From positions 124,001 to 188,000 of the IMG/VR virus record IMGVR_UViG_3300025770_000004: 64,000 nucleotides of DNA, one strand, 5' to 3'. How positions within the stretch are numbered: position 1 is the stretch's first letter; each line of letters starts with the position of its first letter. This DNA comes from a virus. Made by a program: the position numbers and the translations under genes. Below, in pieces: positions 49,237 through 55,390 of the stretch. The notes beneath the pieces were generated by a model. The model made no database searches. It was not told the DNA's origin and saw only the letters and a list, made by a program, of their open reading frames with translations.

Positions 49237-49914
49237 TTATTTTCTTAGTTCTGAATGATTTTTTGATAAAGCTACTAATCTTTGCTTAAATGGTCTATTA
49301 CTACCCTCATGATAACAATAACTAGGGTCTAGTATAAGTGTTGGTTTATTATCTATGAAATATCTATTCATATGACTTTCATCGTGCCAAACAGCAATAA
49401 TACCTTTTTCAAAATCATTATTAGTTCTATCAGATAATACTTTTGACATTTTTAGATATTCTTCTGATGTACCACCATTAAATCCACCTGCTAAATATTG
49501 CATTTCCTCATTCGGAGCAACATATGCGAGTGAATTTGTATTCGTTTCGGGTGTTCCTCTAACTTCATAATAACCACAATGTTGTGTAGCTACTCTTTCG
49601 CTTAAAATTTCATCACCAACGAAATCAACAAATCTCATATCTGCATCACAATAATATAGATAATCCATTTTTGATAATTCGTTTGAATTATTTGAGAATA
49701 TTTCATATCGACCTAGTGTCATCCAGGGCCACTCTTTATGCTCAACATTAATTCTAACTACTTTCCTATTAGTATTAATCTGTATATCTTCATTAGTAAA
49801 AACAAAGTATGTTACATCCTGGTCTTTAAGAAAAAACCTATCAGCACTTTCAATTAGTGGTTGTAAAAATTGCGAGTATTTATTTGTTGCTATTATTAAT
49901 AATCCTATTTTCAT
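49237..49914 (-). CDS. Family 6 glycosyltransferase (GT6, blood-group A/B-like)
   Basis: A 225-residue transferase. HKEWPWMTLGRYEIF, YYCDADMRFVDFVG (DxD metal site), AGGFNGGTSEEYLKM and AVWHDESHMNRYFID are GT6 hallmarks shared with mammalian alpha-1,3-Gal/GalNAc transferases. GT6 genes occur in a few bacteria and in cyanophage P-SSM2. It retains configuration and probably adds alpha-1,3 Gal or GalNAc, often to a fucosylated acceptor, which fits the GT11 gene in the same operon. Confidence 0.92.
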   Translation of the reverse strand: MKIGLLIIATNKYSQFLQPLIESADRFFLKDQDVTYFVFTNEDIQINTNRKVVRINVEHKEWPWMTLGRYEIFSNNSNELSKMDYLYYCDADMRFVDFVGDEILSERVATQHCGYYEVRGTPETNTNSLAYVAPNEEMQYLAGGFNGGTSEEYLKMSKVLSDRTNNDFEKGIIAVWHDESHMNRYFIDNKPTLILDPSYCYHEGSNRPFKQRLVALSKNHSELRK

Positions 49915-50645: not shown

Positions 50646-52760
50646 TTATTCATCACCCTCTTTTTTCTTACGAGTAGCTCTTTTCTTCTTAGTAAGAACA
50701 ATCATTTTCTCATTTTCACTATCATAATCAAGTGTTAACTTAGATCCTTTAGGTGGATTAGATTCAATGATTTCTTCTGTTAGAACATCTTCAACGTGTC
50801 TTTGAATTGCTCTTTTCAAAGGTCTAGCCCCATATTGAGGATCAAATCCTTCACCAGCTATATAATTGATAGACTCGTCTGTAAAGTCAAGTGTGAATTC
50901 CATTTGCTCAACTCTTTCAACAACTTTAGCAACTTCAATCTTGATTATCTCATTAATATCTTCTCTATCTAAAGAGTTAAACATAATGATATCATCAACA
51001 CGATTTAAGAATTCGGGTGCGAATTTTTTCTTCAACTCTTTATCAATAACCGCATTGGAGTGTTCACCTTTAGACGATTGTTTTGCTTTTGTTGAAAATC
51101 CAACACCATTACCAAAATCTTTTAATTGACGAGAACCAGTATTTGATGTCATAATAATAATCGTATTCTTGAAGTTCACCTTTCTTCCAAGTGAATCAGT
51201 TAATTGACCATCATCTAATACTTGAAGTAGTAAGTTAAATACTTCTGGGTGAGCTTTTTCAATCTCATCAAGTAAGATTACAGAATAAGGTTTTCTTCTA
51301 ACTTTTTCAGTTAATTGTCCACCCTCATCGTGACCAACATATCCCGGAGGTGCTCCAATCAATCTAGACACTGCGAATTTCTCCATATACTCTGACATAT
51401 CAATTCTAATTAAAGACTCTTCTGAGTCGAAAAGATACTTGGTCAATTCTTTGGCTAATTGTGTTTTACCAACACCAGTAGGTCCCAAGAACATAAATGA
51501 ACCAATTGGTTTATTCGGGTCTTTAAGTCCAACACGACCTCTCTGAATAGCTTTCACAATCTTTTTAACAGCCTCATCTTGTCCAATAACTTTAGATGAT
51601 ACTACATCTTTCATCTTTCCAAGTTTTGTATTCTCTTTCTCGTTTACCTTACTAACAGGTACACCAGTCATCATCGAAATAACTTCAGCAACATTTTCAT
51701 CAGTTACAGTTTGTCTATTGTTTTTTGAATCATCCTCCCAAGCTTGTCTTGCTATATCCAAAGATTCATTAAGTTGTCTTTCAACATCTCTTAGTTTAGC
51801 CGCTTCTTCATATTTCTGAGAACGTATAACATCGTTCTTCATTTCTTTAATATCGACAATCTTTTTCTCAATGGAAGTTATTTCCTTTGGAACAATTATA
51901 TTAGCGATATGTACTCTAGCCCCAGATTCATCAAGAGCATCAATAGCCTTATCTGGTAAGAATCTATCATTCATATATCTTGTTGTTAATTCAACACAAG
52001 CCTTAATAGCATCTGGTGTATAAGTAACATTATGATGGTCTTCATATCTATCAAGTATGTTACTTAAAATTTGAATTGACTCTTCTGGTGTTGCTGGCTC
52101 AACAACTACCTTTTGAAATCTTCTTTCAAGTGCCCCATCTTTTTCGATATGCTTTCTGTACTCATCAAGTGTAGTTGCTCCAATGATTTGTATTTCACCA
52201 CGAGCTAATGCTGGTTTGAACATATTGGATGCGTCAAGTGAACCTGATGCACCACCAGCACCGATAATAGTATGAATTTCATCAATGAAAAGAACAATAT
52301 CAGGATCTTTTTCAAGTTCTGACATAAGAGCTTTGATTCTTTCTTCAAACTGTCCTCTATACTTAGTACCAGCTACCATAGAAGCTAAATCAAGCATTAC
52401 AATTCTTTTATTAAAAAGAATTCTACTAACTTTTCTTTGAACTATTCTAAGTGCTAATCCCTCTGCGATAGTAGATTTACCAACCCCTGGTTCACCGATT
52501 AGAATCGGATTATTTTTCTTTCTTCTTGAAAGAATTTGAGAAACTCTTTCGATTTCCTTTTCTCTTCCAACAATTGGATCAAGCTTACCATCTTCTGCCA
52601 TCTTAGTTAGATCACGACTATAAGTATCTAATACCGGAGTTTTAGATTTCGGGTCTGGTTTCTTAGAAGAAATGTATCTATCCTCATCACCACCATCATC
52701 AATTGAAGCTTTCACTTCTTCAACTTTATCCAAATATTCTTTCTCTTTATTTTCTTCCAT
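50646..52760 (-). CDS. ClpC/ClpB-family AAA+ unfoldase lacking the N domain
   Basis: A 704-residue double-AAA protein. First ATPase: GREKEIERVSQIL, Walker A GEPGVGKST (89-97), Walker B IVLFIDEIHTIIGAG. A short middle segment EEAAKLRDVERQL is the UVR-type linker of ClpC, not the long ClpB coiled coil. Second ATPase: FLGPTGVGKTQLAKEL, IRIDMSEYME, VILLDEIEKAHPEVF, and a D2 small domain. The first ~45 residues are a disordered lead in place of the Clp N domain. It may thread substrates into host ClpP or act as a disaggregase with the phage DnaK system. Confidence 0.94.
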   Translation of the reverse strand: MEENKEKEYLDKVEEVKASIDDGGDEDRYISSKKPDPKSKTPVLDTYSRDLTKMAEDGKLDPIVGREKEIERVSQILSRRKKNNPILIGEPGVGKSTIAEGLALRIVQRKVSRILFNKRIVMLDLASMVAGTKYRGQFEERIKALMSELEKDPDIVLFIDEIHTIIGAGGASGSLDASNMFKPALARGEIQIIGATTLDEYRKHIEKDGALERRFQKVVVEPATPEESIQILSNILDRYEDHHNVTYTPDAIKACVELTTRYMNDRFLPDKAIDALDESGARVHIANIIVPKEITSIEKKIVDIKEMKNDVIRSQKYEEAAKLRDVERQLNESLDIARQAWEDDSKNNRQTVTDENVAEVISMMTGVPVSKVNEKENTKLGKMKDVVSSKVIGQDEAVKKIVKAIQRGRVGLKDPNKPIGSFMFLGPTGVGKTQLAKELTKYLFDSEESLIRIDMSEYMEKFAVSRLIGAPPGYVGHDEGGQLTEKVRRKPYSVILLDEIEKAHPEVFNLLLQVLDDGQLTDSLGRKVNFKNTIIIMTSNTGSRQLKDFGNGVGFSTKAKQSSKGEHSNAVIDKELKKKFAPEFLNRVDDIIMFNSLDREDINEIIKIEVAKVVERVEQMEFTLDFTDESINYIAGEGFDPQYGARPLKRAIQRHVEDVLTEEIIESNPPKGSKLTLDYDSENEKMIVLTKKKRATRKKKEGDE

Positions 52761-53812: not shown

Positions 53813-53860
53813 ACTATTATTTTATTTTAAAAGGAAAAGTTTACAAATTGTATATAAATA

Positions 53861-53897
53861 AAAAACCCATCAATGAAATAAATCTATTGATGGGTTT
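53861..53897. terminator. Terminator after tRNA/large-RNA unit
   Basis: A 10-bp inverted repeat (ACCCATCAAT / ATTGATGGGT, 11-nt loop; 53865-53895) with A/T flanks, just past the last tRNA-like gene on the minus strand. It closes the 55.1-53.9 kb RNA unit. Confidence 0.8.
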
Positions 53898-53975
53898 ATA
53901 GATGATGTTAGGTAATCAAAACTGTTCAAAACAGACCCTCTAATTAAAGAGAAGTTAACCACTACGAAAACTTTG

Positions 53976-54070
53976 TAGTCAGTATTGGATTCGAACCAAT
54001 GTTTATAACCCGAAAAGGTTACTGTCCTCGGAGTATCTTAAAAGAGACCCCACCACTAGACGAACTGACC
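53976..54070 (-). tRNA. tRNA-Glu(UUC)-like gene with D-loop hairpin insertion (copy 1)
   Basis: 95 nt. Acceptor GGTCAGT / ACTGACT (one G-U), discriminator A, no encoded CCA. TC GTCTAGTGG ... AGGAC is the D-arm of bacterial tRNA-Glu, but about 22 nt (GGGGTCTC-TTTTAA-GATACTCC hairpin) sit inside it. The anticodon arm is TAACC-TTTTCG-GGTTA, with TTC at 54014-54012; the arm has one nucleotide more than canonical. T-arm ATTGG-TTCGAAT-CCAAT is perfect. It follows the large RNA and its terminator. It may be functional with modified decoding, or a tRNA-shaped element. Confidence 0.6.
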
Positions 54071-54074
54071 ATAT

Positions 54075-54113
54075 AAAAAAGACTGAGATTACATCTTTAA
54101 GTGACAAGTCTTT
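54075..54113 (-). terminator. Terminator of the large RNA
   Basis: Stem AAAGACT (54113-54107) / AGTCTTT (54084-54078) around a 22-nt loop, then a T-run, 5 nt before the first base of tRNA copy 1. The loop is long, so it may be leaky and let the tRNA be transcribed. Confidence 0.6.
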
Positions 54114-55005
54114 AGTTGGATTATTAATTCCCAACTTATCCACCGTTTCTTTTGTGAACGGTATCTTGTCAGTGACGGTTAGTTAGACTAACCACTTCTT
54201 GAGTTACTAATTACTCTCCACTTACTCTGCTTATTCAAGATTCGCATCCTGATTCGGGTTTCGACACCCTATAAGTTTTTCAGTGAAATCACGTCCGCCT
54301 TTCGAGCTTTCGTGGCCGTGAACGATTCACGACTAAGTAGTCACCTTTCACTAGTAACTAGGTAACACTTTCGATTTATTTTTAGTTTTGAATTAAAATT
54401 AAATTTAAGTGTTTGTAGATTGTTTCGAAGGAGTGGTTACCTCTCAGCTCTCAAAATTTTTGGTCTCAAGAATACTGGACTTCTCCGTGTGATGCCTCCA
54501 CCACAACCATTTAAGATATCTTCATCACAACTGTACGTTTGTTAGACTGCTACAATCTACTCTCTTGGTAGAGAGATTAATGTTCTACAACAGCACCACC
54601 TGTACGAAGAATTGTCTTTCGACTTTGAGATACCTCTCAGATTGAGACACACAATGGTATTAACCGGATAGTCAACACTTCTTGTAATAATCTCTATGAG
54701 TTATTCTTATTGGTCTTCCGACCTCAACTGAACACCTACAAATTGCCCAGTCACGAATCCATTTCCCTACGGAGTTACCCTCGGTACTTCAAGATTGGTG
54801 ATATCTCACTTGCTTACTCGAGCTCAAACTAGGTTCGAGCCGCAGACACATTTTACACATTGTATCCACTTTATCCCACTTTCGTGGTTTATTTAAGGAC
54901 TATAAGCCGCCCTACATCCACTCTGTTCCGAAGAACTCTAAGACCGAAGTCGAGTTTCTGTGTATTTAACATTTCAAAGAACATATGTTACTCCGTTGAG
55001 TAACT
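54075..55005 (-). ncRNA. Large structured non-coding RNA between two tRNAs (GOLLD/ROOL-like candidate)
   Basis: About 930 nt without a protein frame, richer in GC than its neighbours. Minus-strand hairpins include GTTACTC-AACG-GAGTAAC (55004-54987), GAC-TTCG-GTC (54951-54942), GTTC-TTCG-GAAC (54936-54925), CCAC-GAAA-GTGG (54887-54876), an 8-bp stem at 54840-54822, GGTC-GGAA-GACC (54723-54712), an 8-bp bulged stem at 54705-54686, GTC-GAAA-GAC (54623-54614), CTCTCT-ACCA-AGAGAG (54575-54560), CGTGAA-TCG-TTCACG (54331-54317), a 6-bp stem at 54193-54177 and a 6-bp stem at 54162-54142. GNRA and C(UUCG)G loops fit only the minus strand. It ends at AAAGACT/AGTCTTT plus U-run (54113-54075). Confidence 0.7.
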
Positions 55006-55010
55006 TCTTG

Positions 55011-55106
55011 TAGTCGGTAGAGGAATCGAACACTCTGTCTGTAACCCGAAAAGGTTACCGTCCTAAGATTCTCTCAAGAGAAAACCAGCCACTAGACGAA
55101 CCGACC
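55011..55106 (-). tRNA. tRNA-Glu(UUC)-like gene with D-loop hairpin insertion (copy 2)
   Basis: 96 nt, same design as copy 1. Acceptor GGTCGGT / ACCGACT, discriminator A, no CCA. GTCTAGTGG ... TTAGGAC is interrupted by a different hairpin (TTCTC-TTGA-GAGAA core). Anticodon arm GTAACC-TTTTCG-GGTTAC, TTC at 55050-55048, again one nucleotide over canonical. The T-arm (AGAG, extra T, G-loop-C, CTCT) has a bulge, so this copy is the more degenerate. Acceptor bases co-vary with copy 1 (A-T to G-C), arguing for selected structure. It lies just downstream of three promoters and opens the RNA unit. Confidence 0.55.
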
Positions 55107-55120
55107 ATTTTGTTTTGTTT

Positions 55121-55172
55121 GTCTTACAAATATAAGTAGAGTTTTTCGTTCTACCTAATTTATTTATAATTT
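55121..55172 (-). promoter_or_regulatory. Promoter repeat 1 before the tRNA/large-RNA unit
   Basis: Contains TATATTTG (55134-55127) preceded by GGTAGAA and an AT-rich block shared with repeat 2. Start of transcription would fall near 55120, about 14 nt before tRNA copy 2. Confidence 0.65.
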
Positions 55173-55210
55173 CTTTTTTTATTTTTTGAAGACTTCATTG
55201 TCTTTGTTTG

Positions 55211-55262
55211 TTCTTACAAATATAAGGAGACTTTTCTCTTCTACCTAATTTATTTATAATTA
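55211..55262 (-). promoter_or_regulatory. Promoter repeat 2
   Basis: Same layout as repeat 1, TATATTTG at 55224-55217 with the shared AATTAGGTAGAA block upstream; about 90 nt from repeat 1. Confidence 0.6.
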
Positions 55263-55337
55263 TTTTCAAAAAACAATTAAAGTATGACGTATTATAGTTT
55301 TATGGAACAAACCGCAAACTACTGGTTCTCTTTAATT

Positions 55338-55390
55338 GTCTTACAAATATACGGATAGACTTTCGTTCTACCAAATTAATTTGTAATTAA
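55338..55390 (-). promoter_or_regulatory. Promoter repeat 3 (complete -33/-7)
   Basis: TATATTTG at 55351-55344 with TTTG at 55375-55372, 20 nt apart: a full match to the Bacteroidota TTTG-N20-TAnnTTTG promoter. The GTAGAACGAAAG spacer start is shared with repeat 1. Confidence 0.7.

What the first reader, a model, noticed from the sequence alone, without database searches (positions are those of the whole stretch)
53861..55390. Large structured RNA flanked by two tRNA-like genes: candidate new giant phage ncRNA
Seen: about 930 nt with no reading frame, at least twelve minus-strand hairpins, three GNRA-type (GAAA, GGAA, GAAA) and two C(UUCG)G tetraloops that only make sense on the minus strand, higher GC than surroundings, an end terminator, and three promoters upstream. 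Established: GOLLD and ROOL RNAs are of similar size, occur in phages and prophages, and are often found beside tRNA genes. Inference: this is either a divergent member of one of these classes in a Bacteroidota phage or a new class.
Basis: partly seen in the sequence, partly recalled or inferred. Interest (0 to 1): 0.92.

Follow-up and report, generated by a model that had tools for sequence, protein, structure and literature searches.

The report
GOLLD RNA bracketed by odd tRNA-likes
The large folded RNA is a clear member of the known giant phage RNA family GOLLD, found here in a relative of the largest Bacteroidota phages; what is unusual is that it sits between two altered glutamate-tRNA-like RNAs, carrying extra hairpins and a misshapen anticodon arm, which probably mark where it is cut out of its transcript.

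Summary
Observation confirmed, identity resolved. The ~940-nt orf-less minus-strand segment (54071-55010) is GOLLD. Rfam RF02032 matches over the whole model at 54080-54487 (278 bits, E 2e-78); ROOL does not match. The 5' half outside the Rfam model is also conserved RNA structure: 52 of 117 pairs covary in seven phages. So it is not a new class. Relatives include LR745206 (634,780 bp) and LR756502 (642,428 bp), apparently Mahaphage-clade huge phages.

The new part is the flanks. Both are tRNA-Glu-like RNAs, missed by ARAGORN. Each has a 24-nt D-loop insert that can form a hairpin, and an anticodon arm with six pairs and a six-nt loop; the extra pair covaries. Such elements recur in other virus contigs, often in pairs around GOLLD or small RNAs.

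Across 38 GOLLD clusters, 13 have a tRNA or tRNA-like starting 10-28 nt after the GOLLD end; some others keep a shrunken or degenerate one. Best explanation: one unit with three Bacteroidota-type promoters and a terminator, in which the tRNA-likes are RNase P/RNase Z cutting marks that release GOLLD. Processing is inferred, not shown. Anticodon-nuclease escape, tRNA cargo or glutamylation by the phage's GluRS remain open.

The parts
54080..54487 (-). GOLLD 3' domain (the part covered by Rfam RF02032)
   Evidence: RF02032, 278.4 bits, E 2.1e-78, model 1-416 of 416
54488..54945 (-). GOLLD 5' domain, outside the Rfam model
   Evidence: Alignment A2 of 7 phages (54483-54945): 117 pairs, 95.7% of cells paired, 52 pairs with changes on both sides, shuffles 26.5, slid controls 8-12
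54946..55010 (-). 5' leader of GOLLD with a GUUACUC/GAGUAAC hairpin and UUCG hairpins; exact 5' end of the RNA unknown
   Evidence: Sequence; hairpin 54987-55004
54369..54425 (-). A/U-rich linker inside GOLLD
   Evidence: Low-complexity stretch aligned to the unpaired A/U-rich part of the Rfam model; poorly conserved in A1
55011..55106 (-). tRNA-Glu-like element A, upstream of GOLLD; 24-nt D-loop insert (55065-55088), six-pair anticodon stem with UUUUCG loop (55041-55058), bulged U in the T stem
   Evidence: sequence; alignment and pair counts; relative in LR745206 at 94% identity
53976..54070 (-). tRNA-Glu-like element B, directly downstream of GOLLD; 24-nt D-loop hairpin insert (54029-54052), six-pair anticodon stem with UUUUCG loop (54005-54022)
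   Evidence: Rfam tRNA 43.5 bits with insert; pair counts
53898..53975 (-). Small conserved structured spacer RNA (GUUUUCGUAGUGGUUAACUU...)
   Evidence: Conserved in six virus records; 21 consensus pairs, 6 with changes on both sides
53859..53897 (-). Intrinsic terminator (12-bp stem, T run)
   Evidence: Read directly
55340..55375 (-). Bacteroidota-type promoter 1 (TTTG, 20 nt, TATATTTG)
55213..55248 (-). Bacteroidota-type promoter 2 (TTAG, 20 nt, TATATTTG)
55123..55158 (-). Bacteroidota-type promoter 3 (TTAG, 20 nt, TATATTTG)

Best explanation
The segment encodes one non-coding transcription unit of a huge Bacteroidota phage: three tandem promoters, tRNA-Glu-like A, GOLLD, tRNA-Glu-like B, a small structured spacer and a terminator. 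GOLLD is expected to fold into its 5' cap domain, linker and 3' ring domain and to assemble into the RNA cage known for this family. The two tRNA-likes act mainly as punctuation. RNase Z or exonucleases trim the 3' end of A, and RNase P cuts at the 5' end of B, releasing GOLLD with defined ends. Because this needs mainly the acceptor and T arms, the D loop and anticodon arm could change. Shown: GOLLD identity, its structure, the tRNA-like cloverleaf, the repeated side-by-side arrangement, promoters and terminator as sequence. Inferred: transcription, the processing, the cage in this phage, and that the tRNA-likes do not decode. GOLLD identity alone: about 0.98.
For: GOLLD. 5' domain covariation. 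Cloverleaf of the tRNA-likes: 97.7% of cells paired, acceptor and T helices 100%. A tRNA or tRNA-like starts 10-28 nt after the GOLLD end in 13 of 38 clusters (34 of 121 loci), with several identities: Met, Glu-like, Pro, Cys, Gly (Thr in one more locus). An acceptor-plus-T-arm search gave 13 of 38 clusters against 0.03 in shuffles, and 0, 0 and 1 in three control regions further downstream. Some loci retain only a shrunken form: L112 has acceptor and T arm with a short linker, and L022/L043 look alike by eye. An ARAGORN tRNA also ends 780-1150 nt upstream of the GOLLD end in 10 of 32 clusters, and none ends within the GOLLD body. The odd tRNA-Glu-likes occur in pairs around other RNAs too: a conserved spacer RNA (L067, L173, L174) and short stretches in G006. 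Canonical tRNA-Glu genes coexist in G000 and LR745206, so the odd ones are not needed for decoding GAA/GAG.
Against: No transcript or end-mapping data were available. 25 of 38 GOLLD clusters have no ARAGORN or Glu-like tRNA directly 3'; many of these end in what looks like a terminator, so tRNA cutting is not universal. The six-pair, six-nucleotide anticodon arm is conserved and covaries, which pure punctuation would not require; this suggests a further role or another enzyme that reads that arm. Clustering at tRNAs is also expected from phage tRNA islands in general.
Confidence: 0.62

Rival explanations
1. The tRNA-Glu-likes are counter-defence RNAs: decoys or cleavage-resistant substitutes for host tRNA-Glu, whose altered anticodon arm blocks or ties up anticodon nucleases such as RloC.
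For: RloC fragments hybridised mainly with tRNA-Glu and it excises the wobble nucleotide (PMC2610378). Phage tRNAs often carry anticodon-loop changes that should block nucleases (PMC10264068). Here the changed anticodon arm is shared by all 14 sequences aligned, and a canonical tRNA-Glu is also carried.
Against: The cases reported there are loop mutations, not an added pair; the D-loop inserts and the tight GOLLD adjacency are not explained. Same-design tRNA-Glu genes also occur in Pirellulaceae chromosomes.
Confidence: 0.15
2. The tRNA-Glu-likes are charged by the phage's own glutamyl-tRNA synthetase and used as glutamate carriers or unusual decoders, for example in frameshifting.
For: A complete GluRS (TIGR00464, 386 bits, cut-off 290) lies at G000:191952-193439, about 13 kb from GOLLD. 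The Glx synthetase family PF00749 is in 7 of 9 records with these elements but 0 of 12 other large GOLLD phage contigs.
Against: The two sets differ in phylogeny and contig length, so the contrast may only mark one phage clade; some of the matches are GlnRS, as the one tested in LR745206 was. A six-nt loop on a longer stem is not known to me to decode, and D-loop hairpins would crowd the elbow.
Confidence: 0.12
3. The tRNA-likes stay attached to GOLLD and are cargo or plugs of the RNA cage.
For: Kretsch et al. propose that cages may enclose phage tRNAs and note tRNAs in the GOLLD linker of some members (PMC12286853).
Against: In this phage the tRNA-likes are at both ends of the RNA, not in the linker. 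The same elements occur without GOLLD in the stretches held (L146, L142, L144).
Confidence: 0.07
4. It is a new class of giant RNA, or ROOL.
For: The 5' half is outside every Rfam model.
Against: The 3' half matches GOLLD over the full model far above cut-off, and the 5' half is aligned in the same order in other GOLLD loci, including the more distant L003.
Confidence: 0.01

Closest known systems
GOLLD RNA (Rfam RF02032; cryo-EM of env-38, Kretsch 2025, PMC12286853)
   Same: Full-length 3' domain match, size class above 800 nt, less conserved 5' domain, A/U-rich linker, phage genome, next to tRNAs
   Different: Bracketed at both ends by tRNA-Glu-like elements with altered arms; cage formation not tested here
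ROOL RNA (giant phage RNA, cryo-EM in PMC12286853)
   Same: Similar size class, phage location beside tRNAs
   Different: No match to the ROOL model up to E = 5
Bacteroidota tRNA-Glu(UUC)
   Same: G1-U72 acceptor stem, UUCGUCUA/AGGAC D arm, UUCGA T loop, UUC in the anticodon loop (compare G000:4171)
   Different: Six-pair anticodon stem with six-nt loop instead of five and seven; D-loop hairpin inserts; element A has a bulged T stem
Second tRNA-Glu-like gene of Pirellulaceae (L155, L156, L169 and others)
   Same: The same six-nt UUUUCR loop on a longer stem, beside a canonical tRNA-Glu gene in two genomes
   Different: Chromosomal, no D-loop insert; not known to be near GOLLD

Membership tests
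GOLLD (RF02032) | Covariance-model score above the curated 150-bit cut-off, whole 3' domain | tested here: met
   278.4 bits, model 1-416 of 416
GOLLD (RF02032) | Structured, less conserved 5' domain | tested here: met
   117 pairs, 52 covarying in 7 phages; homology to the env-38 5' domain itself not compared
GOLLD (RF02032) | Encoded in phages or prophages, often near tRNAs | tested here: met
   312,709-bp virus record; tRNA-likes on both sides
GOLLD (RF02032) | Homo-14-mer cage | not testable with these tools
   Needs cryo-EM or native gels
ROOL | Match to the Rfam ROOL model | tested here: not met
   Only GOLLD, tRNA and a sub-threshold Phe_leader up to E = 5
Canonical tRNA-Glu | Cloverleaf with acceptor, D, anticodon and T arms | tested here: met
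   97.7% of cells paired; element B 43.5 bits to RF00005
Canonical tRNA-Glu | Five-pair anticodon stem with seven-nt loop | tested here: not met
   Six pairs and six-nt loop; extra pair CG 12, GC 1, UA 1
Canonical tRNA-Glu | D loop without an inserted hairpin | tested here: not met
   24-nt inserts in A and B; ARAGORN finds neither
RNase P substrate | Cut at the 5' end of the tRNA-like | not testable with these tools
   Needs enzyme or RNA end mapping

The most novel reading that the evidence does not exclude
Huge Bacteroidota phages carry a distinct family of non-decoding tRNA-Glu-like RNAs (six-nucleotide anticodon loop on a six-pair stem, D loop able to hold hairpins or, in L144, an insert of roughly 130 nt). 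They use these, usually in pairs, as brackets that deliver GOLLD and several smaller RNAs from their transcripts, possibly with a phage GluRS adapted to them.
Probability: 0.35. Interest if true: 0.72.

Novelty: new variant of a known kind. Interest (0 to 1): 0.48.

Why it matters
GOLLD has an atomic structure but no known function. Finding it in relatives of the largest known phages, cut out (if the model holds) by tRNA-like brackets, gives defined ends to test and ties it to tRNA processing. The tRNA-likes change two features normally fixed in tRNAs, the anticodon arm geometry and the D loop, while keeping a covarying cloverleaf; annotation programs can miss those with inserts. They would make a compact test of what a tRNA must keep when it no longer decodes.

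Tried and rejected
A first viral-contig pattern for the tRNA-like found nothing; a version with the six-nt spacing did. The custom minihelix search at full stringency found only 6 clusters; allowing one acceptor mismatch gave 13. A first structure for the D-loop inserts was off by one column; corrected, 96.2% of cells pair and three pairs covary, but with only four sequences. I considered a +1 frameshift tRNA (8-nt loop), but the covarying 32:38 pair argues for a six-nt loop instead. I considered an intron in the D loop; no bacterial splicing machinery for such an insert is known to me and no evidence was found. Paper searches found no account of D-loop-insert phage tRNAs; the library is incomplete. 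Homology of the 5' domain with the env-38 structure could not be compared, because that sequence was not at hand.

Full report
What was checked. The minus strand of 53861-55390 was read, scanned for ORFs, composition, folding, promoters, tRNAs and Rfam families. The -7 box TATATTTGTAAG occurs three times in 64 kb, all in the right place and orientation; 0.06 are expected.

What the large RNA is. Rfam GOLLD matches 54080-54487 over the whole model with 278.4 bits, cut-off 150. GOLLD was found once in the 312,709-bp virus record. The Rfam model covers only the 3' domain. The 5' half (54488-54945) was aligned with six other phages. RNAalifold gives 118 pairs; with 117 of them counted, 95.7% of cells pair and 52 pairs change on both sides, against 26.5 in shuffles and 8-12 when slid. 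The structure was derived from the same alignment, which favours it over the slid controls, but the shuffle control points the same way. Hence the 940 nt between the tRNA-likes are read as one GOLLD with both domains and an A/U-rich linker at 54369-54425.

Whose genome. The nearest records in the phage collection are LR745206 (634,780 bp; 92% of the 1551-base query covered at 85% identity) and LR756502 (642,428 bp). Their lengths match two of the four largest complete genomes of Al-Shayeb et al.; the five genomes of that study above 634 kb all fall in the Mahaphage clade with predicted Bacteroidetes hosts (PMC7162821). That these are the same genomes is inferred from length.

The flanking elements. 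Both flanks are tRNA-Glu-like. Fourteen sequences of the family were aligned. With a cloverleaf written on, 97.7% of cells pair and 13 of 22 pairs change on both sides (shuffles 8.4; slid 0-5). Three departures from a tRNA are clear. First, the anticodon stem has a sixth pair (old 32:38), seen as C-G, G-C and U-A, leaving a loop UUUUC[AG] or UAUUCA. Second, many have an insert at the same D-loop site: 24 nt in the window, about 44 nt in LR756502's upstream copy, a GNRA hairpin plus a second helix in L067, L146, L173 and L175, roughly 130 nt in L144. LR756502's downstream copy has none. Third, the A type has a bulged U in the T stem in the window, LR745206, L067, L146 and L175. Canonical tRNA-Glu genes coexist in G000 and LR745206. 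Single-sequence folding puts B in the cloverleaf with the hairpin only in its centroid, and folds A differently, so the comparative evidence carries the claim.

The arrangement. In 121 GOLLD loci (38 clusters at 90%), a tRNA or tRNA-like starts 10-28 nt after the conserved UCUCA in 34 loci (13 clusters), mostly tRNA-Met but also Glu-like, Pro, Thr, Cys and Gly. A search for acceptor plus T arm alone gives 13 of 38 clusters against 0.03 in shuffles of two-base blocks, and 0, 0 and 1 in control regions. Among these, L112 has only acceptor and T arm, and L126 a degenerate tRNA. L022 and L043 also look like a shortened tRNA by eye. Many others end in what looks like an ordinary terminator. Upstream, a tRNA ends 780-1150 nt before the GOLLD end in 10 of 32 clusters, none inside the body. 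The altered tRNA-Glu-likes also come in pairs around other RNAs: a conserved spacer RNA with 6 covarying pairs (L067, L173, L174), and short stretches in G006.

How it most likely works. One transcript carries A, GOLLD, B and the spacer. Cutting at the tRNA-like ends would give GOLLD defined termini. Acceptor and T arms are what RNase P and RNase Z mainly read (established enzymology), which fits the conservation of these arms and the freedom of the D loop. This is inference; no RNA data exist here. The weak point is that the anticodon arm is not free: its new shape is conserved. That keeps alive a counter-defence role (RloC prefers tRNA-Glu, PMC2610378) or charging by the phage GluRS at G000:191952-193439. 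PF00749 is present in 7 of 9 records with these elements and 0 of 12 chosen GOLLD contigs without; the sets differ in phylogeny and contig length, so this is a lead only.

What is known and what is new. GOLLD, its cage and its liking for tRNAs are published (PMC12286853; PMC6582537, describes tRNA genes up- and downstream and a pseudo-tRNA inside a mycobacterial GOLLD). This locus is a new member. The altered tRNA-Glu-like brackets appear undescribed in the papers I could search, but that library is partial. I therefore rate it a new variant of a known kind.

Noticed in passing
L144 (minus strand, about 404-579): A tRNA-Glu-like gene with a D-loop insert of roughly 130 nt, in a 347,857-bp virus contig that has three loci with tandem altered tRNA-Glu-likes.
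   Followed up: partly
L152, L155, L156, L159, L160, L162, L163, L168, L169, L170: Pirellulaceae and related Planctomycetes genomes carry a tRNA-Glu gene with the same enlarged anticodon arm; in two genomes checked (G001, G002) a canonical tRNA-Glu is also present.
   Followed up: partly
L150:3325-3740, L172:575-1190: A 5' half of tRNA-Glu ending in two GC-rich hairpins precedes a small ORF and an intact tRNA-Glu; the ORF looks like a GIY-YIG endonuclease by eye. Similar truncated copies occur in other Bacteroidota and Patescibacteria contigs, which suggests a mobile element using tRNA-Glu.
   Followed up: partly
53898-53975; L004, L067, L146, L173, L174: A conserved small structured RNA (GUUUUCGUAGUGGUUAACUU...) follows a tRNA or tRNA-like in six records, one of them (L146) without GOLLD in the stretch held.
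   Followed up: partly
55123-55158, 55213-55248, 55340-55375: The spacers of the three promoters contain imperfect inverted repeats (GGTAGA...TCTACT), which may be an operator.
   Followed up: no
G000:191952-193439 (outside the window): Complete bacterial-type glutamyl-tRNA synthetase gene (TIGR00464, 386 bits).
   Followed up: partly
window 49237-49914: Glycosyltransferase family 6 protein (PF03414, E 3e-44), near a ClpA/ClpB-like ATPase (50646-52760).
   Followed up: no
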